From: a virus
DNA: 64,000 nucleotides
Virus record (IMG/VR): IMGVR_UViG_3300027736_000041
Coordinates: 1 to 64,000 of that record
Direction: 5' to 3' (one strand)
Numbering within the stretch: position 1 is the first letter of the stretch; each line of letters begins with the position of its first letter. Made by a program: the position numbers and the translations under genes. The notes below the pieces were generated by a model. The model saw only the letters and a program-made list of their open reading frames with translations. It did not search any database and was not told where the DNA came from. Positions 9,331 through 40,261 of this stretch are shown here, piece by piece.

Positions 9331-9344
9331 TGCACACAAGTCTT

Positions 9345-9430
9345 GCCGGAATGATGAAATGGCAGACATACCTGACTTAAAATCAGGAGGCGGCTAATCC
9401 GCCGTGTGGGTTCGACTCCCACTTCCGGTA
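9345..9430 (+). tRNA. tRNA-Leu (anticodon UAA), type II, no encoded CCA
   Basis: The acceptor arms GCCGGAA (9345-9351) and TTCCGGT (9423-9429) pair with one G-T. The anticodon stem CCTGA/TCAGG encloses CTTAAAA (anticodon TAA). A long variable arm (AGGCGGCTAATCCGCCGT) marks a type II tRNA. The T arm is GTGGG-TTCGACT-CCCAC. The 3' end reads ACCG, not ACCA, so CCA must be added enzymatically. It reads UUA and UUG leucine codons. Confidence 0.92.
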
Positions 9431-9450
9431 CCGTGGGAGGCAATCTGTTG

Positions 9451-9479
9451 TTGACATGGCACTCGTTGCCGTGTATGCT
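9451..9479 (+). promoter_or_regulatory. Strong sigma70-like promoter
   Basis: TTGACA (9451-9456) is a perfect -35 and TATGCT (9474-9479) a good -10, separated by exactly 17 bases. Transcription would start near 9486. The region between tRNA-Leu and the GTG at 9592 is otherwise non-coding in my reading. A hairpin terminator lies only about 46 bases after the likely start. Confidence 0.75.
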
Positions 9480-9531
9480 TAGGATGACTCAGGAAACAGA
9501 GAGAGTATTTTTGCTTACTGTTTGCTGGTCA

Positions 9532-9576
9532 GAGGTCTCTGAGAAGTTGCCTCCCCTCAGAGACCTCACTTTTTTT
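9532..9576 (+). terminator. Rho-independent terminator or attenuator before the regulator gene
   Basis: GAGGTCTCTGA (9532-9542) pairs perfectly over 11 bases with TCAGAGACCTC (9557-9567), followed by ACTTTTTTT. It is downstream of the promoter at 9451-9479 and upstream of GTG 9592, so transcripts from that promoter would form a roughly 90-base RNA unless read through. It could be an attenuator, a small RNA terminator, or the terminator of the upstream operon. Confidence 0.7.
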
Positions 9577-9591
9577 CTGGAGAAAATAGTC

Positions 9592-22547: not shown

Positions 22548-25500
22548 ATGCCAACGAGAGAGGGTATCCAGCATTTTGTCGATACATCCGAGCCAAATGG
22601 TGTCCAACCCGGTGATGAGTGGTGGAACATTGGTACGGGAAGATATTACAAGCGTGTGGTATTCAGCAATGGCGGTGTAGGCTGGACGGAGATTGCACAG
22701 CCTTCCTTGATGCTTGGTGCTGCGAGTACATGGGCATTGACTCAGGCATTCAATGGAGGAATAACAGGAACAACAGCGGCGTTCAGTGGAGGAATAACAG
22801 GAACAACAGCGGCGTTCAGTGGTAGCGCAGCGTCTGATTTCATGATCATTGGATCTGGAAGAAGTTCTTCTGTTCAGGCGTCTTTGGATGTAAAGGGACA
22901 GGTACGCGCTCCACAATACATTATTGGCAATCCTGTCTCAGGATCGTCAATTACGTATGGGGCTGCAACAAGTAATAATCTTCTTCCTCCGCCCATGTTT
23001 CAAGGTGGAACTGGAGCATTGACCTCGGTAGGGACGGCAGCAACGGGGTCAAGTCCTTCTGGTGTTGTGATTGACCCTACTGGCAGATTTGTTTTTGTGA
23101 CGAATATATCTAGCATCACGGTGCAAACCTATACCATAAATCAATCCACCGGAGCATTGACCTCAGTAGGGACGGCAGCAACGGGGTCAAGTCCTAAAAG
23201 TGTTGCGGTTGATCCCACTGGCAGGTTTGCTTTTGTGGGAAATTTGAACGGCGCTACGGTGCAAGCCTATACCATCAATCAATCTACCGGAGCATTGACC
23301 TCAGTAGGTGCGGTAGCAACGGGGACAACTCCTCGGACTGTTGCGGTTGACCCAACTGGCAGATTTGTTTTTGTTGCGAATTATAGTAGCGATACCGTAC
23401 AAGCCTTCACCATCAATCAATCTACTGGAGCATTGACCTCGGTAGGCACGGCAGCAACGGGAACAAATCCTTATGGTGTTGCGGTTGATCCGACCGGCAG
23501 GTTTGCTTTTGTGACGAATTATAGTGTCAATACAGTACAAGCCTATACCATTAATCAATCGACGGGAGCATTGACCTCGGTAGGAGCGGTACCAACGGGG
23601 GCAGCTCCTCAGGGTGTTGCGGTTGACCCAACTGGCAGATTTGCTTTTGTCGCGAATCTTAGTAGCGCTACCGTGCAAGCCTATACCATCAATCAATCCA
23701 CCGGAGCATTGACTTCGGTAGGCACGACAGCAACGGGGACATTTCCCACTGGTGTTGCGGTTGATCCAACTGGCAGGTTTGCTTTTGTCCCGAATAGTAG
23801 TGGCGCTACCGTGCAGACCTATACCATTAATCAATCGACGGGAGCATTGACCTCGGTAGGCACGGCAGCAACGGGGACAACTCCTCAAGATGTTGCGGTT
23901 GACCCGACTGGCAGATTTGCTTTTGTGGTGAATTATAATAGCGACACGGTACAAACCTATCGTATTAATAATTTTGCGGCTAATAGTGGAACATTTCAGG
24001 ATCAGTTAATCATTGGCTCTGGAAGAAGTTCGTCTGGTCAAGCAGCACTTGATGTCAGTGGACAACTTCGCGCTCCACAATACATTATTGGAAATCCTGT
24101 CTCAGGATCATCCATTACATACGGGGCTGCAACAAGTAACAATCTTCTTCCTCCGCCAACTTTTCACGGAGGAACCGGAGTGTTGACATCTGTAGGGACG
24201 GCAGCAACTGGGACAAATCCTAACAGTGTTGCGGTTGATCCGACCGGCAGGTTTGCTTTTGTGGCGAATAATGGTGGCACTACCGTACAAGCCTATACCA
24301 TTAACCAATCCACCGGAGCATTGACTTCGGTAGGCACAGCAGCAACGGGAACAAGCCCTTATGGTGTTGCGGTTGACCCAACTGGCAGATTTGCTTTTGT
24401 GACGAATTATGGTAGCGCTACCGTGCAGGCCTATACCATTAACCAATCCACCGGAGCATTGACCTCGGTAGGGACGGTAGCAACGGGAACAAGTCCTCAG
24501 CTTGTTGCGGTTGACCCAACTGGCAGGTTTGCCTTTGTGACGAATTATAGCGGCTCTACAGTACAAGCCTATACCATTAACCAATCCACCGGAGCATTGA
24601 CTTCGGTAGGCACAGCAGCAACTGGGTCAAATCCTTATGGTGTTGCGGTTGACCCGACTGGCAGATTTGCTTTTGTGACGAATTATGGTAGCGCTACGGT
24701 ACAGGCCTATACCATCAATCAATCTACCGGAGCATTGACCTCGGTCGGAGCGGTAGCAGCGGGGAATAGTCCCTCCCTTGTTGCGGCTGACCCGACTGGA
24801 AGATTTGCTTTTGTCGCGAATCAGGGTGTTGCTACTGTACAGACGTATACGATTAATCAATCAACTGGAGCATTAACCTCGGTTGGGACAGTAGCAGCGG
24901 GGACATTTCCTAATGCTGTTGCGGTTGATCCAACTGGCAGATTTGCTTTTGTGACGAATTATGGTAGCGCTACGGTGCAAACCTATACCATTAACCAATT
25001 GACCGGAGCATTGACCTCGATAGGAACGGTAGCAACGGGAACAAGTCCTTTTGGTGTTGTGGTTGATCCAACTGGCAGGTTTGCTTTTGTGACGAATTAT
25101 AGTAGCAATACAGCACAGGCCTATCGTATTAATAATTTTACGGCCAATAGTGGAACATTCCAAGATGGTTTAACTATTGGAACAGGAAACATTGTTTCTA
25201 CTCTCGCCCCAAGTGCAGTGTATGTGAGTGGACAACTCCGCGCTCCACAATACATCATTGGAAACCCAGTTTCAGGATCGTCTATTACCTATGGAGCAGT
25301 AACGGCAAACAATCTTCTTCCTCCGCCCATGTTTCAAGGTGGAACTGGAGCATTGACCTCGGTAGGGACGGCAGCAACGGGGTCAAGTCCTAAAAGTGTT
25401 GCGGTTGACCCGACTGGAAGATTTGCTTTTGTGACAAATCTTAGTACCCCTACAGTACAAGCCTATACCATTAATCAATCAACCGGAGCATTGACCTCAG

Positions 25501-27845
25501 TAGGTGCGGTAGCAACGGGGTCAAGTCCGCAAAGTGTTGCGGTTGACCCAACTGGCAGGTTTGCTTTTGTGACAAATTATTCTAGCGCTACGGTGCAAAC
25601 CTATACCATTAACCAATTGACCGGAGCATTGACCTCGGTAGGAACGGCAGCAACGGGGACAAATCCGCAAAGTGTTGCGGTTGATCCAACTGGCAGATTT
25701 GTTTTTGTGGCGAATTACAATAGCATCACGGTACAGGCATATACCATCGATCAATCTACCGGAGCATTGACCTCGGTAGGAACGGTAGTAACGGGGAACA
25801 ATCCTAATATTGTTGCGGTTGACCCAACTGGCAGGTTTGTTTTTGTCTCGGATTATTATGACAACAAGGTATATGCCTGTACCATTAATCAATCAACCGG
25901 AGCATTGACCTCAGTAGGTGGGTTAGCAACGGGGTCACAGCCTCAGGGTGTTGCGGTTGACCGAACTGGCAGGTTTGTTTTTGTGGCGAATTATGGTAGC
26001 GCTACGGTACAGGCCTATACCATTAATCAATCCACCGGTGCATTGACTTCGGTAGGAGCGGTAGCAACAGGGACAACTCCTTATGGTGTTGCGGTTGACC
26101 CAACTGGCAGGTTTGCTTTTGTGACGAATTATGGTAGCGCTACGGTGCAAACCTATACCATTAACCAATCAACCGGAGCATTGACCTCGGTAGGAACGGT
26201 AGCAACTGGGACCGCTCCGCAAAATGTTGCGGTTGACCCAACTGGTAGATTTGCTTTTGTGACGAATTATGCTGGCGATACGGTACAGGCCTATCGTATT
26301 AATAATTTTGCCGCAAATAGTGGAACATTTCAGGATCAATTAACTATTGGAACAGGAAACATTGTTTCTACTCTCGCCCCAAGTGCAGTGTATGTAAGCG
26401 GACAACTCCGCGCTCCGCAATACATTATTGGAAATCCTCTGTCAGGATCTTCCATTACATATGGGGCCGTGACGAGCAATAATCTTCTTCCTCCGCCAAC
26501 TTTCCACGGAGGGACTGGAGCATTGACCTCGGTAGGAGCGGTAGCAGCGGGAACAAATTCGCGCATGGTTGCGATTGATTCGTCCGGACGATTTGCCATC
26601 GTTGCGAATTTTGGCTCCGCCACCGTACAGCCTTTCGTGATCAATCAATCGACCGGGGCACTTACCGCGGGGACGGCCGTGGCGTTCGGCAGTAGCGCAT
26701 ATAGCGTGGCAATTGATCCGACCGGGCGCTATGCCTACGTCTGCGGGGGCAGCGCCACCTACACCGTCCAGCCATACACGATCAACCAGTCCACTGGCGA
26801 TTTGACAGCGGGGACTGCGGTAACCACTGGAAATACTCCGAATGCCGTTACGGTTGATCCCACCGGACGGTTCGTCTACGTGACGAATCAGAATGATGCT
26901 ACGGTTCAATGTTTTTTGATCACTCAAAGCACTGGAGCGTTGACCTCAATGGGAGCGGTAGCAACAGGAACCGGTTGCTTTGCGGTTGTGGTAGATCCCT
27001 CCGGACGGTTTGTCTTTGTCGCGAATCAGGGTCTTGCTACTGTACAGACGTATACGATTAATCAATCAACTGGAGCATTGACCTCGGTAGGAACGGTAGC
27101 AACGGGGACAAATCCTCGCCAACTCGCTGTTGATCCCACTGGCAGGTTTCTTTTTGTGACGAATTATGGTAGCAGCACGGTGCAGCCCTTCACAATCAAC
27201 CAGTCAACTGGGACATTGACCGCGGGAACTGCCGTGGCAACCGGGACAACTCCTCATTGTGTTGCGGTAGACCCGACCGGACGACTTGTCTTCGTTGCAA
27301 ATAGTGTTGCTGGCACACTTCAGACTTACTCGATCAATCAATCTACCGGAGCATTGACCTCTGTGGGAACCGTGACGACAGGAACAACTCCTTGGGGTGT
27401 TGCGGTTGATCCAACTGGTCGATTTGTTGTTGTGGGAAACAATGGCGGAGCCACCGTGCAGTCCTTCCGAATTAATAATTTTGCGGCAAATAGTGGAACA
27501 TTTCAAGATCAACTCGGCATTGGGACGACTACTCCAAATTCTACCTTGCACGCATCCGGTTCTTTTAGCGTAGCAATTCTTTCAATTACTGGCGCAACAA
27601 CATTGGATGCGACTCATAACGTAGTGTTGTGCGGAGGAACGTCTTCGTATCAAGTTACCTTGCCAACTGCTGTGGGAATTGCCGGAAGAATGTATCAAAT
27701 AAAAAAGACAAGCATTTCTGACTATACATTGACCATTGGCACCACTTCGTCACAAACTATTGACGGAAGCACTTCATTAGGATTTGCAACACAGTATAAT
27801 AATTTTGTAGTTATTTCTGATGGCGCAAATTGGAGTTTGTTGTAA
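22548..27845 (+). CDS. Giant appendage protein with four 7-bladed YVTN-type beta-propellers
   Basis: The start is ATG 22548 (GGGAG upstream); 1765 residues. An N-terminal fibre-like region (GDEWWNIGTGRYYK, then a duplicated GGITGTTAAFS) leads to four arrays of seven 46-residue blades, with consensus VAVDPTGRFAFVTN then TVQAYTINQSTGALTSVG. Each array starts after SGQLRAPQYIIGNPVSG...NNLLPPPTFHGGTG and ends in YRINNFAANSG. The C-terminal domain is LCGGTSSYQVTLPTAVG. YVTN/lactonase-type repeats form 7-bladed propellers, which bind ligands or sugars on one face. The protein is likely a receptor-binding or carbohydrate-binding appendage. Confidence 0.8.
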   Translation: MPTREGIQHFVDTSEPNGVQPGDEWWNIGTGRYYKRVVFSNGGVGWTEIAQPSLMLGAASTWALTQAFNGGITGTTAAFSGGITGTTAAFSGSAASDFMIIGSGRSSSVQASLDVKGQVRAPQYIIGNPVSGSSITYGAATSNNLLPPPMFQGGTGALTSVGTAATGSSPSGVVIDPTGRFVFVTNISSITVQTYTINQSTGALTSVGTAATGSSPKSVAVDPTGRFAFVGNLNGATVQAYTINQSTGALTSVGAVATGTTPRTVAVDPTGRFVFVANYSSDTVQAFTINQSTGALTSVGTAATGTNPYGVAVDPTGRFAFVTNYSVNTVQAYTINQSTGALTSVGAVPTGAAPQGVAVDPTGRFAFVANLSSATVQAYTINQSTGALTSVGTTATGTFPTGVAVDPTGRFAFVPNSSGATVQTYTINQSTGALTSVGTAATGTTPQDVAVDPTGRFAFVVNYNSDTVQTYRINNFAANSGTFQDQLIIGSGRSSSGQAALDVSGQLRAPQYIIGNPVSGSSITYGAATSNNLLPPPTFHGGTGVLTSVGTAATGTNPNSVAVDPTGRFAFVANNGGTTVQAYTINQSTGALTSVGTAATGTSPYGVAVDPTGRFAFVTNYGSATVQAYTINQSTGALTSVGTVATGTSPQLVAVDPTGRFAFVTNYSGSTVQAYTINQSTGALTSVGTAATGSNPYGVAVDPTGRFAFVTNYGSATVQAYTINQSTGALTSVGAVAAGNSPSLVAADPTGRFAFVANQGVATVQTYTINQSTGALTSVGTVAAGTFPNAVAVDPTGRFAFVTNYGSATVQTYTINQLTGALTSIGTVATGTSPFGVVVDPTGRFAFVTNYSSNTAQAYRINNFTANSGTFQDGLTIGTGNIVSTLAPSAVYVSGQLRAPQYIIGNPVSGSSITYGAVTANNLLPPPMFQGGTGALTSVGTAATGSSPKSVAVDPTGRFAFVTNLSTPTVQAYTINQSTGALTSVGAVATGSSPQSVAVDPTGRFAFVTNYSSATVQTYTINQLTGALTSVGTAATGTNPQSVAVDPTGRFVFVANYNSITVQAYTIDQSTGALTSVGTVVTGNNPNIVAVDPTGRFVFVSDYYDNKVYACTINQSTGALTSVGGLATGSQPQGVAVDRTGRFVFVANYGSATVQAYTINQSTGALTSVGAVATGTTPYGVAVDPTGRFAFVTNYGSATVQTYTINQSTGALTSVGTVATGTAPQNVAVDPTGRFAFVTNYAGDTVQAYRINNFAANSGTFQDQLTIGTGNIVSTLAPSAVYVSGQLRAPQYIIGNPLSGSSITYGAVTSNNLLPPPTFHGGTGALTSVGAVAAGTNSRMVAIDSSGRFAIVANFGSATVQPFVINQSTGALTAGTAVAFGSSAYSVAIDPTGRYAYVCGGSATYTVQPYTINQSTGDLTAGTAVTTGNTPNAVTVDPTGRFVYVTNQNDATVQCFLITQSTGALTSMGAVATGTGCFAVVVDPSGRFVFVANQGLATVQTYTINQSTGALTSVGTVATGTNPRQLAVDPTGRFLFVTNYGSSTVQPFTINQSTGTLTAGTAVATGTTPHCVAVDPTGRLVFVANSVAGTLQTYSINQSTGALTSVGTVTTGTTPWGVAVDPTGRFVVVGNNGGATVQSFRINNFAANSGTFQDQLGIGTTTPNSTLHASGSFSVAILSITGATTLDATHNVVLCGGTSSYQVTLPTAVGIAGRMYQIKKTSISDYTLTIGTTSSQTIDGSTSLGFATQYNNFVVISDGANWSLL
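22755..22820 (+). repeat. 33-bp tandem duplication in propeller gene 1
   Basis: The unit GGAGGAATAACAGGAACAAC... occurs twice in a row (22755-22787 and 22788-22820) without visible change. It encodes GGITGTTAAFS twice. Confidence 0.85.
23016..27488 (+). repeat. Four arrays of seven 138-bp propeller-blade repeats (28 units)
   Basis: Arrays run about 23016-23981, 24180-25145, 25350-26315 and 26520-27488. Each unit encodes 46 residues. Units in arrays 1-3 are very similar at DNA level; array 4 is more diverged (TAGTAVAFGSSAYSVAID for example). Arrays are separated by conserved linkers of about 200 bp. Confidence 0.9.
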
Positions 27846-28354
27846 TGGCATTTAGAGCAGATGTCCCGGTGCTGCTGGCGTCAACCACGTTGGGGAGTGC
27901 GTCGGCGAGTGTGACGTTTTCTGGTTTTAGTTCCGCCTATAAGCACCTTATGATTCTTTTCATGGCACGAAGTTCGGCAACTGCTGGCGCTTACGATACG
28001 CTGGCATATCAATTCAACGGCGACACTGCTGCGAATTATCGGAGTATCGCGAATACAACGGCTACAACTCACGCAAGTGTAGCGATTATTCCCAATACAA
28101 CTACGTTTTTTCCAACTCAACCCGGCATCGGGCGAACGATTATTTTCTACTACAATGACACTTCATCTGGTTGGCAAAAGCGAACTCTTACCGATACGGA
28201 CTCAGATATTGGCACAAGTGCAACAAGCCCATTCACGACCGTGTGGGGCGGTACATGGACCACTGTCAATACTGCCATTACAAGCGTTCTAATGAAAACA
28301 TCGAACGGCAATTTCGTAGCAGGAAGCCGCTTTGACTTGTACGGAATACCCTAA
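27845..28354 (+). CDS. Small appendage protein, lectin-like, copy 1
   Basis: The start is ATG 27845, sharing a base with the propeller stop (TAATG); 169 residues. It is a beta-rich protein with SASASVTFSGFSSAYKHLMI at the start and a SRFDLYGIP end. The same plan appears in 36685-37185 (SASASVTFSNIPASINNL and IFKLYGYP), so the two are paralogues, each placed directly after a propeller gene. It is probably a trimeric tip or binding module; function is not known. Confidence 0.65.
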   Translation: MAFRADVPVLLASTTLGSASASVTFSGFSSAYKHLMILFMARSSATAGAYDTLAYQFNGDTAANYRSIANTTATTHASVAIIPNTTTFFPTQPGIGRTIIFYYNDTSSGWQKRTLTDTDSDIGTSATSPFTTVWGGTWTTVNTAITSVLMKTSNGNFVAGSRFDLYGIP

Positions 28355-28446
28355 TGAATACTGAACCACCCATCGCCATAGAGTTGAACTGCGAAACCGG
28401 CATCGAAACAAGTATAAAAAGGAATGATAAATGGCCAAGCATGTAA
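28354..28446 (+). pseudogene. 30-codon remnant of the gene at 37193
   Basis: The frame from ATG 28354 reads MNTEPPIAIELNCETGIETS and ends after ten more codons. The core IAIELNCETGIE matches IKIEVNCETGEE in the middle of the 155-residue product of 37193-37660. It occupies the same place after the lectin-like gene in copy 1. It looks like a decayed or shortened copy; it may still be translated. Confidence 0.5.
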
Positions 28447-31400
28447 TCCTTGAATCGTATTCGTTCACTCCAGCCACAAGAACGATTGTGGTTTATGGAA
28501 AGTGGATTCGGCGCGAGCAATTGTTGCTTATCACGAACGTGACAAAAAACACGGTCATTTACAATTTCAGCGATCCGTCGCTTGGGGTATCGGCATATAC
28601 GACTGGAATAAGTCAGCAAAGTCCGACAACTCAGCAGAATGAGATCACGACCGTCGTTGTGTCCTATGACACGACCAGTCATTCCGCTACAGACAAGTTA
28701 GCCATTCTTGTTGAAGAGACGTATGAATCTATTCTTCCCGCCGAAACAATGATGGACCCTGTGGGAAAAATGCGGACATCCATTCCGCAAAGTCTTATTG
28801 ATACTGACTTTGAATACGGACAGCAACCGACAAAGTGGGAACATCTGGCACTAGTGAATAACAGGCCGACATGTTTTTATGATCCATCGAGCAGTGCCGC
28901 ACAGTGGACTTACAACGTTGGTGTTGCTTCGCAAAGCACAACCACCGTTACTGGAACGGGCACTACATGGCATGGAGGTTTGATAGGAAGCAGGTTCACG
29001 TATCTTGATGGTACTGATGTGGGAACCATCACCGCGGTGGCAAGTGCCACATCATTGACGGTCTCCACATCTGCCACCGTTCCCTCACAGAGTTACACCA
29101 TTTTTGGATTTCCGTACAAGGGCGGCAGCACAAGTCCTTCACCAGTTGCTGATCCTTCGATCATGTTCAAGGATACAACAACCGACGCAACTGGATACAC
29201 AATTTCATTACTGCTGAATACAGGCGCATTTGGATTGTATGTTGGTCAGCCAATCTATGTCAGCAATTCCCTTGATCAAGCAAACGTTGACGGATGGTGG
29301 GTTGTGGATGCCATTGTGCCTCAGGCGTCCTATGCGGCCGCTGGTGCTAACGTCAATGATATCGTCAGGTTCAAAACCATCAATATTACATCAGCCACAA
29401 ACTTATTTGATCCTACAAAGACTATTGTGTATCCGGGATATTGGTACACGGGAGCTAATATTCCTGTGACATCAATCGCGTGTGCGTCAAATATCATCAC
29501 TGTTACCACTCCGTCGGCTCACGGACTGTCCGTTGGAGAGCAGGTACACATCAACAATACGGCTACGGCTGCATGCAATGGATCGTGGGCAATCACGACA
29601 ACGCCGACAAATACCACGTTTACGATTACCACTCCTGCAGGTGGTTCTCCGGGAACACTTACTCTTAACGGTGGAGTAAATGGAACATTATTCCCCAGAG
29701 CGCAGGGATATGTGATTCATCGTGCGTTTGACGGTGGTGTGCAATTTTCCAATCAGACTCCATATCACGGATTGCAAATGATCCGGCAAACCCGTCGGTA
29801 TTTCCGCTATCAAAGTGGAAAGGCCATTCAATTTTCTACTGGCTCAATTCTCAAGCCAGCTTTGACGGTAGATACAATTACCTCTTCGGGAACTACTGCG
29901 ACAATCACCACGAAATATCCGCACGGCATTACCTACTCTTCGGTAGGAACCAATGCCCAGATCAAAGTCATTGGAGCCTCTGACGTTGCTGGCGTTGCAT
30001 TTCCGGGAACCGCTTCACAGTCCGGAACAGTGATCACTGGCGTCAATACCTATTTCACTTCTGCGCTCACAGGACAGACATTTGTATTTTCAGATGGAAC
30101 TAACGCAGGCGTGATCACTTACGTCAGTGCAACTTCGTTAAATGTCACTGTTTCCCAAACTGTATCATCTCAAAAATATTATGTTCAATCAACTGCCTAC
30201 AATGGAATTTTTACCATTGCCAGTGTTCCATCACTATATACAATCACCTACACGATGTCATCCACTCCAACAAACAGCACGACGACAGCGTTCCCTATTG
30301 ATGGATACCCTTCTGGAATTCAAGTATCCCCTTGGGCATGGTATGGAGGCAAAAACCGTGTTGGAATGTTTGATCAACAAAACGGGTTCTTTTTTGAATA
30401 TGACGGACAAAATGTTTATGCCGTTCGACGAAGCAGCACTATGCAAATACCGGGAACATTTACGGTTACGAATGGTTCCCAATCAGTTGTGGCTTCGTCA
30501 GCAGTTGGATCAATCTCCAGTCACTTGAAACCCGGAGATACCGTAGCGATCCGTGGCGGATCATATACCGTAGGCTCGATTACTTCTGCTACACAAATGT
30601 ACATTTACCCAGAGTACCGTGGTGCTACTCCAGTGAACGCATCATATGTGGCACAAGCACAATCCAACGTTATTGTCAGCAAGACCGTTGACATCCGTAT
30701 TCCTCAAAGCGCTTGGAATATTGACAAGTGTGACGGAACAGGACATTCCGGATTCAACGTTGACCTGACAAAAATGCAAATGTTTTATATTGATTATGCG
30801 TGGTATGGGGCAGGAGCAATCCGCTGGGGGTTCAAAAATAACCGCGGAGAAGTTATTTATTGTCATAGAATGAACAACAACAACATCAATACCGAAGCAT
30901 ACATGAGATCCGGCAACATGTGTGCGAGGTATGAGACCAACACATTGGCTCCGACCACATGGGTGACCAACTGGAATTTAATTGCGGCAAGCACCGGTAC
31001 GATTTACGTTGCTGACGCCACGCAGTTTCCTCCGGCCGGAACACTTGTGGTCACAGCCGCTGGTGGACAAACGGGACAGTTGATCGAGTACATGAACTAC
31101 AGTTCCAGAACAGACTCGACATTCACGATCAGTGCCCGTGGACAGACTGGAGGCGGTGCGGCCGCAACGTTTTCTCCGACAACAACTGCGCCGGTGTCTG
31201 TTTCGTTATATCTGCCTTCTGTCGCCTCGACACTATCTCACTGGGGATCATCGATCATCATGGACGGCAGATACGACGACGACAAGTCGCTTATTTTCTC
31301 GGCCGGAATGAATGTCCCGACAGCGGCGTTGACGGCACGGCAGCAGTATCCATTGATTTCCATCCGCTCTGCGCCAAGTGTTGATAGTGGATTGACGGGA

Positions 31401-32051
31401 TCAATGGGCGCAAGGGAAATTGTCAATAGAATGCAGTTGGTTTTGCGCCAGATGGATGCATTCACTTCGGGAAACAGTTTCGCGGTTGACTTGTGGCTGA
31501 ACGCATCCATTGCGAGTGGCTACTACTACAATGCAACTGGGACTACCGCAAACAGCACGACACTCAATTTGACCGGAACTCTTGTCGGCACCGCCCCTGT
31601 TGCTGGTTCGTATGTGTGGGGACCGGGATTGCTTCCGGGATCGTTCTTCACGGTGTATTCCAATACAACAACAAATACGCTTAGCATTGCTGCTACAGCG
31701 ACAAAAGGCGGAACGTACTGGATCGGCAACAACCAGTTTCAGGCGGTTGGTGGTTCCTCGCTTTCTCAGCGAGTTCTTCATCCACTTACCGACCGGCTTA
31801 TTCCGGGCACTGGAGAGAAAATTTTCACGTTCTTCACTAATTCTTCTGGCGTAACTCAGCAAGATTTGTCGCAGGTTCGTGACATGGCTACTTCCATCGT
31901 AGGTGGTGCCTCCAATGCATACCTTACGCCGGGATATGCCAACAAATATCCGGATGGCCCAGACATCATCACCATGGTTGCAACACCAATCGGTACGGTG
32001 TCCAGTGCCACGATCATTGCGCGTCTGAGTTGGTCAGAAGCACAGGCGTAA
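28431..32051 (+). CDS. Large virion structural protein (tail/appendage)
   Basis: The product is 1206 residues. The segment MMDPVGKMRTSIPQSLIDTD followed by FEYGQQPTKWEHLALVNNRP (about residues 107-145) is a motif I recognise in large structural proteins of T4-like and other myoviruses. The rest is a series of beta-rich domains with short repeats such as SGTTATITTKYPHGITYSS and TVTGTGTTWHGGLIGSRFTY. AAGGA lies upstream of ATG 28431. Placement between the two propeller genes suggests an adsorption-structure component. Confidence 0.65.
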   Translation: MAKHVILESYSFTPATRTIVVYGKWIRREQLLLITNVTKNTVIYNFSDPSLGVSAYTTGISQQSPTTQQNEITTVVVSYDTTSHSATDKLAILVEETYESILPAETMMDPVGKMRTSIPQSLIDTDFEYGQQPTKWEHLALVNNRPTCFYDPSSSAAQWTYNVGVASQSTTTVTGTGTTWHGGLIGSRFTYLDGTDVGTITAVASATSLTVSTSATVPSQSYTIFGFPYKGGSTSPSPVADPSIMFKDTTTDATGYTISLLLNTGAFGLYVGQPIYVSNSLDQANVDGWWVVDAIVPQASYAAAGANVNDIVRFKTINITSATNLFDPTKTIVYPGYWYTGANIPVTSIACASNIITVTTPSAHGLSVGEQVHINNTATAACNGSWAITTTPTNTTFTITTPAGGSPGTLTLNGGVNGTLFPRAQGYVIHRAFDGGVQFSNQTPYHGLQMIRQTRRYFRYQSGKAIQFSTGSILKPALTVDTITSSGTTATITTKYPHGITYSSVGTNAQIKVIGASDVAGVAFPGTASQSGTVITGVNTYFTSALTGQTFVFSDGTNAGVITYVSATSLNVTVSQTVSSQKYYVQSTAYNGIFTIASVPSLYTITYTMSSTPTNSTTTAFPIDGYPSGIQVSPWAWYGGKNRVGMFDQQNGFFFEYDGQNVYAVRRSSTMQIPGTFTVTNGSQSVVASSAVGSISSHLKPGDTVAIRGGSYTVGSITSATQMYIYPEYRGATPVNASYVAQAQSNVIVSKTVDIRIPQSAWNIDKCDGTGHSGFNVDLTKMQMFYIDYAWYGAGAIRWGFKNNRGEVIYCHRMNNNNINTEAYMRSGNMCARYETNTLAPTTWVTNWNLIAASTGTIYVADATQFPPAGTLVVTAAGGQTGQLIEYMNYSSRTDSTFTISARGQTGGGAAATFSPTTTAPVSVSLYLPSVASTLSHWGSSIIMDGRYDDDKSLIFSAGMNVPTAALTARQQYPLISIRSAPSVDSGLTGSMGAREIVNRMQLVLRQMDAFTSGNSFAVDLWLNASIASGYYYNATGTTANSTTLNLTGTLVGTAPVAGSYVWGPGLLPGSFFTVYSNTTTNTLSIAATATKGGTYWIGNNQFQAVGGSSLSQRVLHPLTDRLIPGTGEKIFTFFTNSSGVTQQDLSQVRDMATSIVGGASNAYLTPGYANKYPDGPDIITMVATPIGTVSSATIIARLSWSEAQA

Positions 32052-32086
32052 AATCATCAAACCAATTTTTATGATAAACAGAAGTG

Positions 32087-32092
32087 TATAAT
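32087..32092 (+). promoter_or_regulatory. TATAAT box without clear -35, before 32118
   Basis: TATAAT (32087-32092) lies 26 bases before the gene. No convincing -35 can be found 16-19 bases upstream. Similar lone -10 boxes precede 16217 (TATAAT, 16133), 18410 (TACAAT, 18386) and 37703 (TAGAAT, 37666). Confidence 0.3.
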
Positions 32093-32117
32093 GGGTACAT
32101 AAGCACAGGAGACGAAA

Positions 32118-32474
32118 ATGCCGCAAAGTTATAAAAGATTGAACTCGATCATTTCCAATGCATCGCTTTCAACGCCACTGAATTTATATACCTGCACCAC
32201 AACTTCTGCCGTGGTTAGCACCATCTCTATTTGCAATACGTCAGCATCTGTCGTGACGTATCGCATTTGCGTGACAACGGCTGCCGCTTCGGCTACCGGC
32301 ACAACGTTTCCTGCTGACATCAATGGATACATCGTCTATGACGGAACGATACTAGGCAACGACACATCGTTCGTCACGGTGGGATTGACGCTTGATGCTA
32401 CCAACAAATATCTTCTTGCTTCTTCTAGCGCCGCTTCCTTGGCGATCAGCGCATTTGGAGTGGAGATTTCCTAA
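32118..32474 (+). CDS. Small virion protein
   Basis: The product is 118 residues, with AGGAGA upstream. The pattern TPLNLYTCTTTSAVVSTISI then CNTSASVVTYRICVTT and NKYLLAS resembles small structural proteins found in many tailed phages next to tail genes (beta-sandwich decoration or fibre-tip type). It ends TAATG with the second propeller gene, so the two are translationally coupled. Confidence 0.6.
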   Translation: MPQSYKRLNSIISNASLSTPLNLYTCTTTSAVVSTISICNTSASVVTYRICVTTAAASATGTTFPADINGYIVYDGTILGNDTSFVTVGLTLDATNKYLLASSSAASLAISAFGVEIS

Positions 32475-35400
32475 TGGCAATCAAGAGCCTCAAGGGATTG
32501 GGATCGAAGCCTAGTGCCGTGGCAGACACTGGCACAGCCCTGACCGTTTCAACGCCGCTGACCGCATCCTCAGGAGCAACCATCACTGGAAGTGCCTTGA
32601 CTGCTTCAAACGGATTCATAGTCGCTGGCGGGGCAAACATCGCGGGAGGATTGACCGTTACGAGTGGGTCGCTGTCTGCTCCCGGAGGATTGTCTACGAC
32701 CGCATTGTCTACGCCGACGCTATATCCATCTGGATTAACAGGTGCCGTTGCAGCATCGAGGTGGGTGGGAGGAACCGTTTCAGGTGCCCCTACCAGTGGC
32801 ACATTTGCCGTTGGAGACTATGTAGTAAGTCAAAATGGCTCATTCTATGTCTGTCAGGTAGCAGGCACTCCGGGAACATGGCAGCAAGCGGGAGGATCAA
32901 CGTTTGCGGGACCACTCGTGGTTGGAACTGGAAGAACACAATCCATACAAACAGCAGCAGATATTCAAGGACAATTGAGAGCCTCACAATACATCATTGG
33001 GAACCCAGTTTCAGGATCGTCCATTACATATGGGGCGGTCACGAGTAATAATCTTCTTCCTCCGCCGACTTTCCATGGAGGAACCGGAGTGTTGACCTCT
33101 GTAGGGACGGCAGCAACGGGGAATGGTGCTAACAGTGTTGCGACTGATCCCACTGGCAGGTTTGCTTTTGTCGCGAATAGTAATGGCAATACCGTTCAAG
33201 CCTATACCGTCAATCAATCTACCGGAGCATTGACCTCAGTAGGTGCGGTAGCAACGGGTACATATCCTCAGGGTAATGCGGTGGACCCCACCGGCAGATT
33301 CCTTTTTGTAACAAATTTTAACGGCAATACAGTACAGACCTATACCATCAATCAATCGACCGGAGCATTGACCTCAGTAGGCACGGCAGCAACGGGCACC
33401 AATCCTTATAATGTTGCAGTTGATCCAACTGGCAGGTTTGTATTTGTCCCGAATTTTAATGGCGCCACCGTGCAAGCCTATACCATCAATCAATCCACCG
33501 GAGCATTGACCTCGGTGGGGACAGCAGCAACGGGAACACAGCCTAGAGGTGTCGCGGTTGATCCCACCAGCAGGTTTCTTTTTGTGACAAATGCTTTTAA
33601 TGGAGCCGGAGGGAACACAGTACAGACCTATACCATAAATCAATCCACCGGAGCATTGACCTCGGTGGGGACAACAGCAACAGGGGCACTTCCTGTTAAT
33701 GTTGCGGTTGATCCCACTGGCAGATTTGTTTTTGTGACAAATTATAGTGGAAGTACCGTGCAAGCCTATACCATTGATCAATCTACCGGAATATTGACTT
33801 CCGTAGGTGCTTTATCAACGGGAGCAAATCCCACGAGTGTTGCGGTTGATCCAACCGGTAGGTTTGCTTTTGTTGTGAATAGTACTGACGGTACCGGTAT
33901 GATTTATACTATTAATCAATTCACTGGAGCATTAATTTTTATAGGTTCGGTTACAACAGGATCAAGCCCTAATTATGTTGCGGTTGATCCAACTGGTAGA
34001 TTTGTTTTTGTGTCAAATTATAGTAGCACCACCGTGCAGGCCTTCCGAATTAATAATTTCGCCGCAAATAGTGGAACATTTCAGGATCAATTGACCATTG
34101 GAACAGGAAACATTGTTTCTACTCTCGCCCCAAGTGCAGTGTATGTAAGCGGACAACTCCGCGCTCCACAGCACATCATCGGCAATCCTGTCTCAGGATC
34201 GTCCATTACGTATGGGGCGGCCACGAGTAATAATCTTCTTCCTCCGCCGACTTTTCACGGTGGAACCGGAGTGTTGACTTCGGTAGGTGCGGTCGCAACG
34301 GCGTATGGTTTGGGTGTTGCGATTGACCCAACTGGCAGATTTGCTTTTGTGACAAATACTAGTGGCGATACAGTACAGGCATATACCATTAATCAATCTA
34401 CCGGAGCATTGACCTCGGTAGGCACGGCAGCAACGGGGACAAATCCTAGAGGAGTTGCCGCTGACCCCACTGGCAGGTTTGCTTTTGTTACGAGTTATAG
34501 TAACACGGTGCAGGCCTATACCATCAATCAATCTACCGGAGCATTGACCTCGGTCGGAGCGGTAGCAACGGGGTCTGGTCCTCAAGGAGTTGCGATTGAC
34601 TCCACTGGCAGGTTTGCTTTTGTGACGAGTCAATCTGGCGATACAGTACAGGCATATACCATTAATCAATCTACCGGAGCATTAACCTCGGTAGGCACAG
34701 CAGCAACGGGATCAATGCCTTATGGTGTTGCGGTTGACCCGACTGGCAGGTTTGCTTTTGTGACGAATAATAATGCCTCTACGGTACAAGCCTATGCCAT
34801 TAATCAATCCACCGGAGCATTGACATCGGTAGGAGCGGTAGCAACGGGGACAAATCCCTTGGGTGTTGCGGTTGACCCAACTGGCAGGTTTGCTTTTGTG
34901 GCAAATTTTGGTGTCTCTACGGTACAAGCCTATACCATTAATCAATCGACTGGAGCATTAACCTCGGTCGGAACGGCAGCAACGGGAACATATCCTCGGG
35001 GTGTTGCGGTTGACCCAACTGGCAGATTTGTTTTTGTGACAAATAATAGTAGCGCTACGGTACAAACCTATACCATTAATCAATCCACCGGAGCATTGAC
35101 CTCGGTCGGAGCGGTAGCAACGGGATCAGGCCCTGAAATAATTGCGGTTGATCCGACTGGGAGATTTGTTTTTCTCACGAATTATGGTAGCACCACGGTA
35201 CAAGCCTATCGTATCAATAATTTTGCGGCAAATAGTGGAACATTTCAGGATCAGTTAATCATTGGATCTGGAAGAAGTTCGTCTGTTCAAGCATCGCTAG
35301 ATGTTAGCGGACAACTACGCGCTCCACAATACATCATCGGGAACCCAGTTTCAGGATCTTCTATTACATATGGGGCGTCCACGAGCAACAATCTTCTTCC

Positions 35401-36685
35401 TCCGCCAACTTTCCATGGAGGAACAGGGTCATTGACCTCGGTAGGCACGGCAGCAACGGGGACAAATCCTCAATTTGTTGCGGTTGACCCAACTGGCAGG
35501 TTTGCTTTTGTGACGAATAATGGTACCACCACCATACAGTCCTATACCATCGATCAAACCACCGGAGCATTGACCTCGGTAGGCACGACAGCAACGGGGT
35601 CAAGTCCTTATGCTGTTGCGGTTGATCCAACTGGCAGGTTTGCTTTTGTGGTGAATAATGGTACCACCACCATACAGGCATATACCATCAATCAATCCAC
35701 CGGAGCATTGACCTCAGTAGGTGCGGTAGCAACGGGGACAAACCCTCAATTTGTTGCGGTTGACCCTACCGGAAGATTTGCTTTTGTGACGAATTTTAAT
35801 GCCACCACGGTACAAGCCTATACCATCAATCAATCTACCGGAGCATTGATCTCGGTAGGTACGGCAGCAACCGGCAGTGGACCCACTGGTGTTGCGGTTG
35901 ACCCAACTGGCAGATTTGTTTTTGTGACGAATTATACTAGCACTACGGTACAAGCCTATACCATTAATCAATCCACCGGAGCATTGACCTCGGTAGGGGC
36001 GGTAGCAACGGGAACAACTCCTTATGCTGTTGCGGTTGATCCAACTGGCAGATTTGTTGTTGTTGCGAATTATGGTAGCACTACGGTGCAAGCCTATACC
36101 ATTAATCAATCTACTGGAGCATTGACCTCGGTAGGCACGGCAGCAACGGGGAACAATCCTCAGGGTGTTGCGGTTGATCCAACTGGCAGATTTGTTTTTG
36201 TGACGAATAGTGCTAGCACCACCGTTCAAGCCTATACCATCAATCAATCTACCGGAGCATTGACCTCGGTAGGCACGGCAGCAACTGGGTCAAATCCGTC
36301 TGCTGTTGCGGTTGATCCTACTGGCAAGTTTGTTTTTGTGTCAAATTATGGCAGCACCACCGTGCAGGCCTTCCGAATTAATAATTTTGCCGCGACCGGA
36401 ACACTCTTCTCTCAGGTCACCTCGATCACTGCCGCAACGACACTCGACTCCACACACGGAGTTGTCCTTTGCGGAGGAACCACATCCTATCAGGTCACCC
36501 TTCCCACCGCCGTAGGAATTACTGGGCGGCAATATCAAATAAAGAAGAACAGCACTTCTGCCTATACCTTGACTATCGGCACCACTTCCTCACAGACTAT
36601 TGATGGAGTGACCTCACTCGTATTGACAACGCAGTATAATAATATTGTAGTTATTTCTGATGGCGCAAATTGGAGTATTTTGTAA
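32474..36685 (+). CDS. Giant appendage protein with three 7-bladed YVTN-type beta-propellers
   Basis: The product is 1403 residues and is paralogous to 22548-27845. A fibre-like N-terminus (ASSGATITGSALTASNGFIV) and SGAPTSGTFAVGDYVVSQNG region precede three arrays of seven blades with the same consensus, linkers and C-terminal domain (LCGGTTSYQVTLPTAVG). Blade 4 of array 1 has a four-residue insertion (NAFNGAGGN), and the first two blades of array 2 are one residue short. It probably assembles with its sister as an adsorption structure. Overlap with the upstream gene is one base. Confidence 0.8.
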   Translation: MAIKSLKGLGSKPSAVADTGTALTVSTPLTASSGATITGSALTASNGFIVAGGANIAGGLTVTSGSLSAPGGLSTTALSTPTLYPSGLTGAVAASRWVGGTVSGAPTSGTFAVGDYVVSQNGSFYVCQVAGTPGTWQQAGGSTFAGPLVVGTGRTQSIQTAADIQGQLRASQYIIGNPVSGSSITYGAVTSNNLLPPPTFHGGTGVLTSVGTAATGNGANSVATDPTGRFAFVANSNGNTVQAYTVNQSTGALTSVGAVATGTYPQGNAVDPTGRFLFVTNFNGNTVQTYTINQSTGALTSVGTAATGTNPYNVAVDPTGRFVFVPNFNGATVQAYTINQSTGALTSVGTAATGTQPRGVAVDPTSRFLFVTNAFNGAGGNTVQTYTINQSTGALTSVGTTATGALPVNVAVDPTGRFVFVTNYSGSTVQAYTIDQSTGILTSVGALSTGANPTSVAVDPTGRFAFVVNSTDGTGMIYTINQFTGALIFIGSVTTGSSPNYVAVDPTGRFVFVSNYSSTTVQAFRINNFAANSGTFQDQLTIGTGNIVSTLAPSAVYVSGQLRAPQHIIGNPVSGSSITYGAATSNNLLPPPTFHGGTGVLTSVGAVATAYGLGVAIDPTGRFAFVTNTSGDTVQAYTINQSTGALTSVGTAATGTNPRGVAADPTGRFAFVTSYSNTVQAYTINQSTGALTSVGAVATGSGPQGVAIDSTGRFAFVTSQSGDTVQAYTINQSTGALTSVGTAATGSMPYGVAVDPTGRFAFVTNNNASTVQAYAINQSTGALTSVGAVATGTNPLGVAVDPTGRFAFVANFGVSTVQAYTINQSTGALTSVGTAATGTYPRGVAVDPTGRFVFVTNNSSATVQTYTINQSTGALTSVGAVATGSGPEIIAVDPTGRFVFLTNYGSTTVQAYRINNFAANSGTFQDQLIIGSGRSSSVQASLDVSGQLRAPQYIIGNPVSGSSITYGASTSNNLLPPPTFHGGTGSLTSVGTAATGTNPQFVAVDPTGRFAFVTNNGTTTIQSYTIDQTTGALTSVGTTATGSSPYAVAVDPTGRFAFVVNNGTTTIQAYTINQSTGALTSVGAVATGTNPQFVAVDPTGRFAFVTNFNATTVQAYTINQSTGALISVGTAATGSGPTGVAVDPTGRFVFVTNYTSTTVQAYTINQSTGALTSVGAVATGTTPYAVAVDPTGRFVVVANYGSTTVQAYTINQSTGALTSVGTAATGNNPQGVAVDPTGRFVFVTNSASTTVQAYTINQSTGALTSVGTAATGSNPSAVAVDPTGKFVFVSNYGSTTVQAFRINNFAATGTLFSQVTSITAATTLDSTHGVVLCGGTTSYQVTLPTAVGITGRQYQIKKNSTSAYTLTIGTTSSQTIDGVTSLVLTTQYNNIVVISDGANWSIL
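33089..36394 (+). repeat. Three arrays of seven 138-bp propeller-blade repeats (21 units)
   Basis: Arrays run about 33089-34066, 34271-35230 and 35429-36394. The inter-array segment at about 34066-34165 is almost the same as 26310-26415 in the other propeller gene, which suggests gene conversion between the two genes. Confidence 0.9.
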
Positions 36686-37185
36686 TGAGTTTTTTGACGG
36701 ATAGGCCATTTTTGCTCGGAACATCACTTCTGGCATCTGCTTCAGCCTCGGTGACTTTTTCTAATATTCCCGCCAGTATTAACAATTTGGTTTGTCACTA
36801 CACAGCTAAATCCACTGGAGGTCAGCCAACATACGATTTGTTGGGAATACGATTTAACGGATCATCGGCGGTTGCATACTATAGTACACAAGATGCCGGA
36901 TTAAATGCAGAAGGAAGAATCGCAATTATTCCTCCAAGTGGAATTTTTCCCACAGGTCAGCAAGGTGCTGGAACATTTCATATTTATGATATTCAGAATA
37001 CTGCTAGAGCCAAAGTTGCTTCAGCATTATATATTAATCAATATAGCACAACAGTGAGAAATTTAAACGCAGCGTTTTACGGTGCTGTGTGGGAAAATAC
37101 TGCAGCAATTACTTCTGTTACTTTTCTTGGAGTTATAGCAACTTTAGAAGCCGGAACTATATTTAAATTATATGGATATCCATAA
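36685..37185 (+). CDS. Small appendage protein, lectin-like, copy 2
   Basis: The start is ATG 36685, overlapping the propeller stop (TAATG); 166 residues. Beta-rich, with LASASASVTFSNIPASINNL near the N-terminus and TIFKLYGYP at the end, which parallels 27845-28354. Sequence identity is modest, so the duplication is older than the blade homogenisation. Function is unknown, probably a binding tip. Confidence 0.65.
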   Translation: MSFLTDRPFLLGTSLLASASASVTFSNIPASINNLVCHYTAKSTGGQPTYDLLGIRFNGSSAVAYYSTQDAGLNAEGRIAIIPPSGIFPTGQQGAGTFHIYDIQNTARAKVASALYINQYSTTVRNLNAAFYGAVWENTAAITSVTFLGVIATLEAGTIFKLYGYP

Positions 37186-38539: not shown

Positions 38540-40261
38540 ATGCCTGTAGGATTTCGCGGAGCAGTGTTAGTAGCGCCCGGAGTGGCGTCTTATATCGATG
38601 ATTCTCAAGCGGCCGCTGCTGTAGCTCCAAGCCTGCAGTCAGTTGCCATCGTGGGAGAAGCAGAGCGGGGACAACCCAACACAGCCATTGCATTCAATGA
38701 TGCTGCAACAGCAAATGCGGTCTTTGGCAGTGGAGGCACGGCAACACCATTGATTGATGGAATTGTGCGTGCATTGGCGGCAGGTGCAGGGACAGTGTTT
38801 GCAGTGCGTGTTGGAGCGGCAACACAATCTACTGCTGCGATCACATCATCTGCCACGACAGCGATTACCCTCAAGGCCAATGAATGGGGCACATTGTCCA
38901 ATACGTGGTCCGTCAAGATCGCCAACGGAAGTGCCATCGGAAAGAAAGCAACACTAATCACGCACAGCGGAACAGAATATGTTGTTGACAATGTACAAAA
39001 AAACCTTATCCAGATCATTGGAACCGCAAACACTGGATCAGGATCCGTAACTATTTCTGCAACAAGTGTCTCGTTAACATGGGGGTCACCGGGCACGGCA
39101 GTCGAATATACATTTGCAGCATATCCACGACTGAATAATCTTATCTCCGCCATCAATAATGGCGGAGCGTTTGTCGCGTCCCTAACCACTGCCGCATCTG
39201 CTGCTGGAAGGCAAGCAAGCAATACATTAGACGCAGTGACTACAGTGGCTATTCTTGCCAGTGACGGTACAAATGCAGCAACGTTGCTGACTGGCAATGG
39301 AAAAGCCATGGTTGATGCGCTTAATGGCGAGATTACAGGCAACCTGCTGACGGCAACATTTGTGGCGAATACGGGAGCCCTGACTAATGGAACGTATGTG
39401 TTCAGTGGAGCGGTGTCTGGATTAACGTCCGGAGCTACAACTACTGCTGATTGGGCTACGGCTTTCACGGCGCTGGAAAATGTGAGAAGTTCAGTAGTCG
39501 TACCCATGACTTCAAGTCCAACAAAGCAGGCAACTGCATTCGCGCATGCCAAGAGCATGAGTTTGCCGCAAAACAGTTCCGAAAGAATTGCTGTTATCGG
39601 TGGAGATATTGGACAGACCGTAGCACAAGCAAAGACCCTTGCGGCCGCCTACAACGACAAGCGTGCGGTTGTTGTATGGCCCGGTATCAAGGATTATAAC
39701 GCGGACGGAGACTTGGTTACACTTCCCCCATATTATCTTGCCGCACAGATTGGCGGAATGTTGGCTGGACAAACCGATCAGGCCGAGCCGATGACCAACA
39801 AGCCAGTGAGCCTGTACGGACTGGAGACTATTGCGTCTCGGGCAGATATCGATAATCTCCTCAATGGCGGAGTATTCACGATCAAGAGTGATCCAAACAG
39901 GGGATTTCTTGTGGTGCAGTCGCTGACGACATGGACCGGAGATTTGAAGTTTGCACGACGGGAAATCAGTACCGTTCGGGCTGCTGATCAGACGGTGCGA
40001 ATTGTGCGGGAGTCTGTTGCAGAATTCATTGGAAACAAATCCACAACTCGTCTGCTACAAGTCATTACCATGAAAGTCAATGAAGCGTTACGTTTTTGTG
40101 CGAGTCGCGGATTAATTGTGGATGATCCAGCAAAACCAGCATTATATCCTGCGTTTAAGGATGTCATTATTCGACCGATTGGCGATGCATACTATATTGA
40201 TTTTTCAATTTCTCCCGCAAAACCACTGAACTACTTGCTTATCACTGCGTATGTAAACTAA
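38540..40261 (+). CDS. Tail sheath protein (contractile tail)
   Basis: The product is 573 residues, with AAGGAG upstream. It forms the contractile sheath around the tail tube. GAVLVAPGVASYIDDSQAAA at the N-terminus and the final domain with VNEALRFCASRGLIVDDPAK and DAYYIDFSISPAKPLNYLLI match myovirus sheath proteins. The middle is a variable, Ala/Thr-rich insertion. The gene directly precedes the tube gene, as usual. It fixes the phage as a myovirus type. Confidence 0.88.
   Translation: MPVGFRGAVLVAPGVASYIDDSQAAAAVAPSLQSVAIVGEAERGQPNTAIAFNDAATANAVFGSGGTATPLIDGIVRALAAGAGTVFAVRVGAATQSTAAITSSATTAITLKANEWGTLSNTWSVKIANGSAIGKKATLITHSGTEYVVDNVQKNLIQIIGTANTGSGSVTISATSVSLTWGSPGTAVEYTFAAYPRLNNLISAINNGGAFVASLTTAASAAGRQASNTLDAVTTVAILASDGTNAATLLTGNGKAMVDALNGEITGNLLTATFVANTGALTNGTYVFSGAVSGLTSGATTTADWATAFTALENVRSSVVVPMTSSPTKQATAFAHAKSMSLPQNSSERIAVIGGDIGQTVAQAKTLAAAYNDKRAVVVWPGIKDYNADGDLVTLPPYYLAAQIGGMLAGQTDQAEPMTNKPVSLYGLETIASRADIDNLLNGGVFTIKSDPNRGFLVVQSLTTWTGDLKFARREISTVRAADQTVRIVRESVAEFIGNKSTTRLLQVITMKVNEALRFCASRGLIVDDPAKPALYPAFKDVIIRPIGDAYYIDFSISPAKPLNYLLITAYVN

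What the first reader, a model, noticed from the sequence alone, without database searches (positions are those of the whole stretch)
22548..36685. Seven beta-propellers of exactly seven blades each in two adjacent phage appendage genes
Counted blade by blade, every array (four in the first gene, three in the second) has exactly seven 46-residue YVTN-type units, 49 in total, ending with the same capping sequence. Tandem repeats this similar normally gain and lose units, so keeping exactly seven indicates strong selection for closed 7-bladed propellers. YVTN/lactonase-type propellers strung as beads in a tail appendage are not something I know as a described phage receptor-binding design.
Basis: partly seen in the sequence, partly recalled or inferred. 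Interest (0 to 1): 0.88.

Follow-up and report, generated by a model that had tools for sequence, protein, structure and literature searches.

The report
Beaded seven-bladed propellers on phage fibres
A contractile-tailed environmental phage carries two long fibre-like genes that string together seven ring-shaped protein domains, each built of exactly seven near-identical blades that vary on only one face, which looks like a modular set of outward-facing binding heads for host recognition.

Summary
The count is right: gene A (22548-27845) has four arrays and gene E (32474-36685) three, each of exactly seven ~46-residue YVTN/lactonase-type blades (49; 45 are exactly 46 aa). A model of one array closes as a 7x4-strand propeller (blades pLDDT ~94). 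In other viral contigs, 12 more delimited arrays (blade identity 28-80%) also have seven. One linker-less gene has a run of 14 and a second, unresolved run. The number of whole propellers per fibre changes (1, 3, 4); the blade number does not.

Beyond the original finding: (1) variation sits almost only on one face. dN/dS is ~1.5 at the variable D-A/B-C positions and ~0.05-0.2 on the opposite loops, repeated in two other genomes and one close pair. (2) The chain enters and leaves on the conserved face, so the variable face should point away from the shaft. (3) The linker+propeller+cap module recurs in unrelated phages inside fibres with a Peptidase_S74 chaperone, so it is mobile. (4) Blades are exchanged between arrays without changing the count.

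Most likely these are multivalent receptor-binding fibres. Ligand, host and virion position were not tested. Single-propeller phage adhesins are known (phi11, phiKZ gp131C, endosialidases), so this is a new variant, not a new kind.

The parts
22548..27845 (+). Gene A: fibre-like protein with four seven-bladed propellers
   Evidence: ORF (ATG at 22548 in the sequence); PF10282 Lactonase 2e-183; 28 blades
22548..22829 (+). N-terminal anchor-like region of A; 87% and 77% identical at the N terminus of the propeller fibres in G002 and L052
22830..22994 (+). Shaft/linker before propeller A1 (IGSG..LDVxGQVRAPQYIIGNPVSGSSITYG..NNLLPPP)
   Evidence: low pLDDT in the equivalent part of the E3 model
22995..23960 (+). 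Propeller A1, seven blades
23976..24158 (+). Shaft/linker A1-A2
24159..25124 (+). Propeller A2, seven blades
25140..25328 (+). Shaft/linker A2-A3
25329..26294 (+). Propeller A3, seven blades
26310..26498 (+). Shaft/linker A3-A4
26499..27467 (+). Propeller A4, seven blades (most divergent in A, one 47-aa blade)
27483..27842 (+). C-terminal cap domain of A (shaft motif GIGTTTPNSTLHASG then ..IDGSTSL..VISDGANW); 80% identical to a stand-alone 136-aa ORF in G012
27830..28354 (+). Gene B, 174 aa; relative next to the cap ORF in G012; gene F after E matches the same ORF
28431..32051 (+). Gene C, virion structural protein, phrog_5838 (E 2.8e-240); directly follows the propeller fibre gene in G002 and L052
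32118..32474 (+). Gene D, 118 aa; 65% relative precedes the one-propeller fibre gene in G007
32474..36685 (+). Gene E: fibre-like protein with three seven-bladed propellers
32903..33067 (+). Shaft/linker before propeller E1
33068..34045 (+). Propeller E1, seven blades (one 50-aa blade)
34061..34249 (+). Shaft/linker E1-E2
34250..35209 (+). Propeller E2, seven blades (two 45-aa blades)
35225..35407 (+). Shaft/linker E2-E3
35408..36373 (+). Propeller E3, seven blades; AlphaFold2 model closes as 28 strands
36389..36682 (+). C-terminal cap domain of E, related to that of A
36670..37185 (+). Gene F after E; hits the same G012 ORF as B

Best explanation
Genes A and E encode long virion fibres whose shaft is interrupted by three or four closed seven-bladed beta-propellers. 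Each propeller is entered by strand D and left by strand C of its closing blade. Both termini therefore lie on the face formed by the C-D and A-B loops, which is almost invariant, and the opposite face (D-A and B-C loops) points away from the shaft. That face carries nearly all amino-acid variation and all four blade-length changes of the window, so it is most likely a lectin-like receptor-binding face, repeated as beads along the fibre for multivalent binding. Diversity is made by point change and by exchange of blade segments between arrays, while arrays without exactly seven blades are removed because they do not close. Whole linker+propeller modules are gained, lost and moved between fibre genes and between phages. 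Shown: counts, fold of one array, one-sided variation, module mobility, blade exchange. Inferred: ligand binding, trimeric shaft, virion location, purging of other blade numbers.
For: Exact seven in all 19 delimited arrays: 7 in the window, 4 in G002, 3 in L052, 2 in G007, and 1 each in L055, L060 and L072, across median blade identities of 28-80% for the 18 in which it was computed. Module number varies instead: gene E has 3 propellers while the G007 gene after the D relative has 1, and A-type genes have 4, 4 and 3. AF2 ring with 28 strands and PDB matches to YVTN/lactonase propellers. Entropy above 2 bits only at blade positions 20, 22, 23, 38-41. dN/dS 1.55 (bootstrap 1.23-1.98) at the variable set, against 0.11 for the opposite loops; the same positions give 1.25 in G002 and 1.42 in G007. 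Between the close pair L055/L060, 12 of 16 amino-acid changes fall in the same loops and none in the opposite loops or the S74 region, with 16 synonymous changes spread through the stretch. Blade 3 of L060 is identical to its blade 4 over its last 66 nt, where L055 differs. Nearest relatives of blades lie mostly in other arrays and positions. The module sits in S74-chaperone fibres with collagen-like and repeat shaft parts. Propeller RBPs are known (PMC4901313).
Against: No virion proteomics, host, ligand or binding data. The linker/shaft is not modelled with confidence. The dN/dS values are pairwise, on highly diverged and recombining paralogues, and values near 1 also fit relaxed constraint; with loops defined only by DSSP the window value is 0.91. 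The gene position between head and sheath genes does not prove a tail location. The 14-blade run of G007 gave a low-confidence model (pLDDT 62.6).
Confidence: 0.7

Rival explanations
1. The propellers are only spacers or decoration of a fibre: any stable ring would do, and the one-sided variation is relaxed constraint on exposed loops, with host recognition done elsewhere (for example by the C-terminal cap).
For: dN/dS is near 1 rather than far above it; with loops set by DSSP alone it is 0.91 in the window. The caps resemble those of other fibre genes in the same genome.
Against: The opposite loops, also exposed by topology, are at 0.11. Positions 22 and 23 at the rim of the ring are also diverse. 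In the close pair L055/L060 the amino-acid changes concentrate on the same face. One-sided relaxation needs a reason.
Confidence: 0.17
2. The fibres are head or collar fibres (capsid-attached adhesins), not tail fibres.
For: A to F lie between major head protein (14522-16123) and sheath (38540-40261); neighbour 18410-20773 matches head-decoration families and C matches a head-and-packaging virion protein family.
Against: Other fibre-like genes lie after the baseplate genes; module relatives in other phages are in S74 fibres, which are mostly tail fibres in known phages (established knowledge).
Confidence: 0.25
3. Seven is inherited, not maintained: whole seven-blade modules were duplicated, and too little time or no blade-level recombination has passed for counts to change.
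For: Linkers are highly similar between arrays, and some blades (first blades above all) match the same position in another array more often than chance (14 against 6 expected).
Against: 35 of 49 blades have their nearest relative at another position or in the same array. A blade-to-blade transfer is seen between L055 and L060. Arrays with median blade identity down to 28% still have seven.
Confidence: 0.25
4. The propellers are enzymes (lactonases or glycan-cleaving) used to pass surface polymers.
For: Best Pfam family is Lactonase PF10282, and NCBIfam 6-phosphogluconolactonase PRK11028 scores above cut-off for A. K1F endosialidase is a propeller enzyme in a phage tail.
Against: Each ~330-aa propeller has 0-1 Glu, 0-1 His and 0-2 Lys, so a conserved catalytic Glu or His is absent. 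Rim positions are variable, not conserved. The family score is inflated by repeated blade matches.
Confidence: 0.05

Closest known systems
Staphylococcus phage phi11 receptor-binding protein Gp45 (five-bladed propeller platform in a trimer; PMC4901313)
   Same: Propeller inserted in a trimeric phage adhesin between stem and C-terminal domains, proposed to bind host glycan (GlcNAc of teichoic acid)
   Different: Five blades, one propeller per chain, coiled-coil stem; no tandem beads of near-identical blades
Pseudomonas phage phiKZ gp131C (seven-bladed propeller at the baseplate edge, PDB 4GBF; described in PMC4901313 and PMC6115969)
   Same: Seven-bladed propeller in a contractile-tailed phage, suspected receptor-binding domain
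   Different: Single propeller; not known to be built of near-identical YVTN blades; function unconfirmed
Endosialidases of phages K1F and phi92 (propeller tailspikes; PMC4901313, PMC12632334)
   Same: Propeller in a phage tailspike ending in an intramolecular chaperone, like the L055/L060/L072 fibres
   Different: Enzyme of the sialidase type (six blades, from memory), single propeller with an active-site channel; here almost no Glu or His
Highly repetitive beta-propellers of cellular organisms (PMC9218822, PMC6805158)
   Same: Closed rings amplified from near-identical blades; a few viral members were collected
   Different: There blade numbers scatter and blades resemble those of their own ring most; here every delimited ring has seven and blades are shared between rings; the word 'phage' does not occur in the main text of PMC9218822
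YVTN propeller of archaeal surface-layer protein (PDB 1L0Q) and 6-phosphogluconolactonase family (PF10282)
   Same: Best structural and sequence matches to one propeller
   Different: At most 24% identity in Foldseek; single propeller, cell-surface or enzymatic context
Phage propellers in databases: phrog_19989 and BFVD A0A6J5R6I7, A0A6J5SZJ1 (uncultured Caudovirales)
   Same: Lactonase-type propellers in phage proteins; the BFVD models are 28-32% identical
   Different: Function unknown; I found no described tandem-bead architecture

Membership tests
YVTN/lactonase-type seven-bladed beta-propeller fold | Seven four-stranded blades closed in a ring | tested here: met
   AF2 model of E3: 28 strands, propeller pLDDT ~94; Foldseek E 1.6e-19 to 1L0Q
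YVTN/lactonase-type seven-bladed beta-propeller fold | Sequence match above curated cut-off | tested here: met
   PF10282 609.8 and 488 bits against 21.7
6-phosphogluconolactonase enzyme | Conserved catalytic residues | tested here: not met
   0-1 Glu and 0-1 His per ~330-aa propeller, none conserved; catalytic set recalled from memory, so the test is on composition only
Phage receptor-binding fibre protein | Domain occurs in fibre architecture (shaft motifs, C-terminal chaperone or cap) | tested here: met
   Same module in S74-chaperone fibres, PF13884 29.1 and 29.0 bits against 22; shaft motifs in A
Phage receptor-binding fibre protein | Present in virion | not testable with these tools
   No proteomics
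Phage receptor-binding fibre protein | Binds host surface | not testable with these tools
   Host unknown
Phage receptor-binding fibre protein | Trimeric shaft | not testable with these tools
   Only monomer prediction available; linker pLDDT below 50
Diversity-generating retroelement target | Reverse transcriptase in the genome | tested here: not met
   No PF00078 match in 18 records, all possibly incomplete
Highly repetitive propellers (PMC9218822) | Median blade identity above 60% | tested here: met
   Six of seven window arrays 0.63-0.78; A4 just below at 0.59
Highly repetitive propellers (PMC9218822) | Blades most similar within the same ring | tested here: not met
   Nearest neighbour in the same array for 10 of 49, 6 expected

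The most novel reading that the evidence does not exclude
A mobile, modular receptor-recognition system in environmental phages in which a closed seven-bladed ring is a fixed scaffold with a hypervariable outward face, diversified by swapping near-identical blades between tandem rings (a recombination-based counterpart of DGR or variable-lymphocyte-receptor display), with ring closure acting as the counting device that keeps seven.
Probability: 0.4. Interest if true: 0.82.

Novelty: new variant of a known kind. Interest (0 to 1): 0.64.

Why it matters
Propeller evolution studies say there is no counting system in blade amplification and find scattered blade numbers (PMC9218822). Here is a natural set of near-identical arrays in which blades are exchanged yet every delimited ring has seven, so selection for ring closure can be measured directly. 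If the variable face binds receptors, phages have a multivalent, swappable recognition scaffold that needs no retroelement, and its faces could be read from metagenomes to follow host-phage arms races.

Tried and rejected
Single-protein scans of viral contigs and genome contigs with gene E found no phage relative, because the peptides chosen were poor; the deltaproteobacterial hit L016 is a 30%-identical cellular-type YVTN protein and was left out. tblastn hits in named Listeria and Enterococcus phage records are 21-29% matches in unannotated fragments, perhaps host lactonases, and were not used. Reverse transcriptase (DGR) was not found. psbA was not found, so no cyanobacterial sign; host left open. 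The AF2 run of the 14-blade array is too weak to decide two rings or one; its Foldseek search was not run. Hits L062-L065 to the TINA pattern show no propeller by the blade HMM (L065 gave only weak fragments). My first dN/dS used positions chosen by entropy on the same data; it was repeated with structure-defined loops and in other genomes. The second run of G007_1772 has 14 clear blades plus weak ones; 21 by eye, 19 grouped by the HMM, so it is not counted as evidence.
Full report
What is there. The window belongs to a 72-kb virus record, a contractile-tailed phage with a major head protein at 14522-16123, a sheath at 38540-40261 and baseplate genes after 48 kb. Its nearest named relatives are remote: head protein 26% to Bacteroides phage DAC and about 25% to SPO1-like phages, sheath 32% to Aeromonas phage ST4. 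Between head and sheath lie two very long genes, A (22548-27845) and E (32474-36685), separated by three genes, one of which (C) belongs to a virion structural protein family also found in cyanophages.

Observation. Motif counting and a blade HMM agree: A = 7+7+7+7, E = 7+7+7 blades. 45 of 49 blades are exactly 46 residues. Blade scores (53-94 bits) are far above shuffled proteins (maximum 6.1). Every array is preceded by the same ~55-residue linker and followed by the same RINNF cap. Median nucleotide identity between blades is 75% and the best pair 94%; the longest exact block shared between two arrays is 81 nt, so collapse by short-read assembly is unlikely. The G007 and G009 contigs, held as separate records, are identical over 17 kb of such arrays.

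Fold. A model of linker plus E3 has mean pLDDT 84, ~94 over the propeller and under 50 over the linker, with 28 strands. Best solved matches are the YVTN propeller of an archaeal surface-layer protein and 6-phosphogluconolactonases. The best viral models are propellers of uncultured phages without a tested function.

Is seven maintained? Head-protein relatives and module searches gave other carriers. G002 has a four-propeller A-type fibre, L052 a three-propeller one with strongly diverged blades (median identity 49, 28 and 40%), G007 a one-propeller E-type fibre and a stand-alone 408-aa propeller, and L055, L060 and L072 one each: 12 further delimited arrays, all seven. The weakest blades, in L052 array 2, score 6.6 and 12.5 bits and rest partly on spacing. 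L055 and L060 are close relatives and not independent. G007 also has a linker-less gene with a run of 14 and a further run that I could not resolve; a model of the 14-run is inconclusive. So the unit that changes is the whole propeller, not the blade. This contrasts with cellular repetitive propellers, where larger and smaller numbers are common and no counting system is assumed (PMC9218822).

Inheritance or selection? If modules had only been duplicated whole, each blade should resemble the same position elsewhere; if each ring had been amplified separately, it should resemble its own ring. Neither holds: 14 of 49 nearest neighbours are at the same position of another array (6 expected) and 10 of 49 in the same array (6 expected). 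In the pair L055/L060 a segment of blade 4 has replaced that of blade 3 with no change in number. Blades thus move between places while seven is kept, which favours removal of other numbers, or exchange by conversion only.

One-sided variation. In the blade unit TINQSTGALTSVGTVATGTNPQGVAVDPTGRFAFVTNYGSATVQAY only positions 20, 22, 23 and 38-41 exceed 2 bits of entropy. By the DSSP of the model these are the D-A loop with the start of strand A, and the B-C loop, which in an antiparallel four-strand meander lie on one face. The loops of the other face (3-8, 27-31) are nearly fixed. Pairwise dN/dS is 1.55 against 0.11 in the window, 1.25 against 0.19 in G002 and 1.42 against 0.21 in G007; with loops set only by DSSP the first figures are 0.91, 1.06 and 1.48. 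In L055 against L060, 12 of 16 amino-acid changes fall in these loops and none in the opposite loops or the chaperone region, while 16 synonymous changes are scattered. Several of the 12 lie together in one transferred tract, so the binomial p of about 1e-5 overstates the evidence. All four blade-length changes of the window are also in the D-A or B-C loops.

Orientation. The first strand of the ring is a D strand (LTSVG) and the last a C strand (TVQAFRI). Both connections to the shaft therefore leave from the C-D side, the conserved face, and the variable face lies opposite. This follows from topology and is not a modelled complex.

Fibre context. In L055, L060 and L072 the same linker (SGSSITYAPITANNL) and propeller are followed by a C-terminal region that scores as Peptidase_S74 above cut-off in L055 and L060 and is similar by eye in L072. 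L055 and L060 carry collagen-like GPxGP and repeat-rich shaft stretches before the module. No head-protein or other window relative was seen in these contigs, which are short, so they appear to be other phages and the module mobile. In the window, the linkers and the end of A carry IGTG..LDVxGxxRA / GIGTTTPNSTLHASG shaft motifs. N termini of A, G002 and L052 are shared while C termini differ, and in G012 the cap of A exists as a 136-aa ORF without any propeller, as expected for modular fibres.

Mechanism proposed. Long, probably trimeric fibres present three or four rings per chain as beads, each with a variable outward face of about seven variable residues from each of seven blades, for multivalent, probably glycan-type recognition. 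An enzyme is unlikely: almost no Glu, His or Lys. A DGR is not supported: no reverse transcriptase in 18 records, all possibly incomplete.

Known and new. Propellers in phage receptor-binding proteins are established: phi11 Gp45, PRD1 P2, phiKZ gp131C, K1F/phi92 endosialidases (PMC4901313; PMC6115969; PMC12632334). Propeller lectins on collagen shafts are also reported in extracellular contractile injection systems (PMC12923769). I found no description of tandem near-identical propellers in phage fibres in the papers searched. The verdict is a new variant of a known kind.

Noticed in passing
L039:13360-18675 (-): G007 gene with 14 blades in one uninterrupted run, then a second run of 14 clear plus several weak blades (about 21 by eye), with no fibre linkers; a stand-alone 408-aa seven-blade gene lies next to it. 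Nearly every blade carries a Cys in a CDPTGK motif.
   Followed up: partly
60002-64204 (continues past the window, L002:2-4204): Another long fibre-like reading frame with 75-nt (25-aa) GITVTGNSTITGTLGGLTGLTVASG repeats; further fibre-like genes with related caps or D-type neighbours follow to 70 kb.
   Followed up: partly
42080-48028: 1982-aa probable tape-measure protein carrying both an SLT transglycosylase (PF01464) and an M23 peptidase (PF01551) domain, plus a 63-nt x3 proline/alanine-rich tandem repeat at 47309-47495.
   Followed up: no
38540-40261 and 14522-16123: Sheath and head proteins of relatives are often much longer (sheath 745-1107 aa against 573; head 550-660 against 533), suggesting inserted extra domains in relatives.
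   Followed up: no
64558-67164 and 69675-70598 of the record (L002:4558-7164, 9675-10598): Glycine-rich proteins (GGGGAGG runs) of a kind seen in some phage adhesins, next to the fibre-like genes.
   Followed up: no
L037:3-3572 (-) and 6161-9772 (-): G002 carries two relatives of the C virion protein (58% and 87% to C) near the propeller fibre gene; L052 likewise.
   Followed up: no
13483-13531: Short GACGAT (Asp-rich) tandem repeat inside the 574-aa gene before the major head protein.
   Followed up: no
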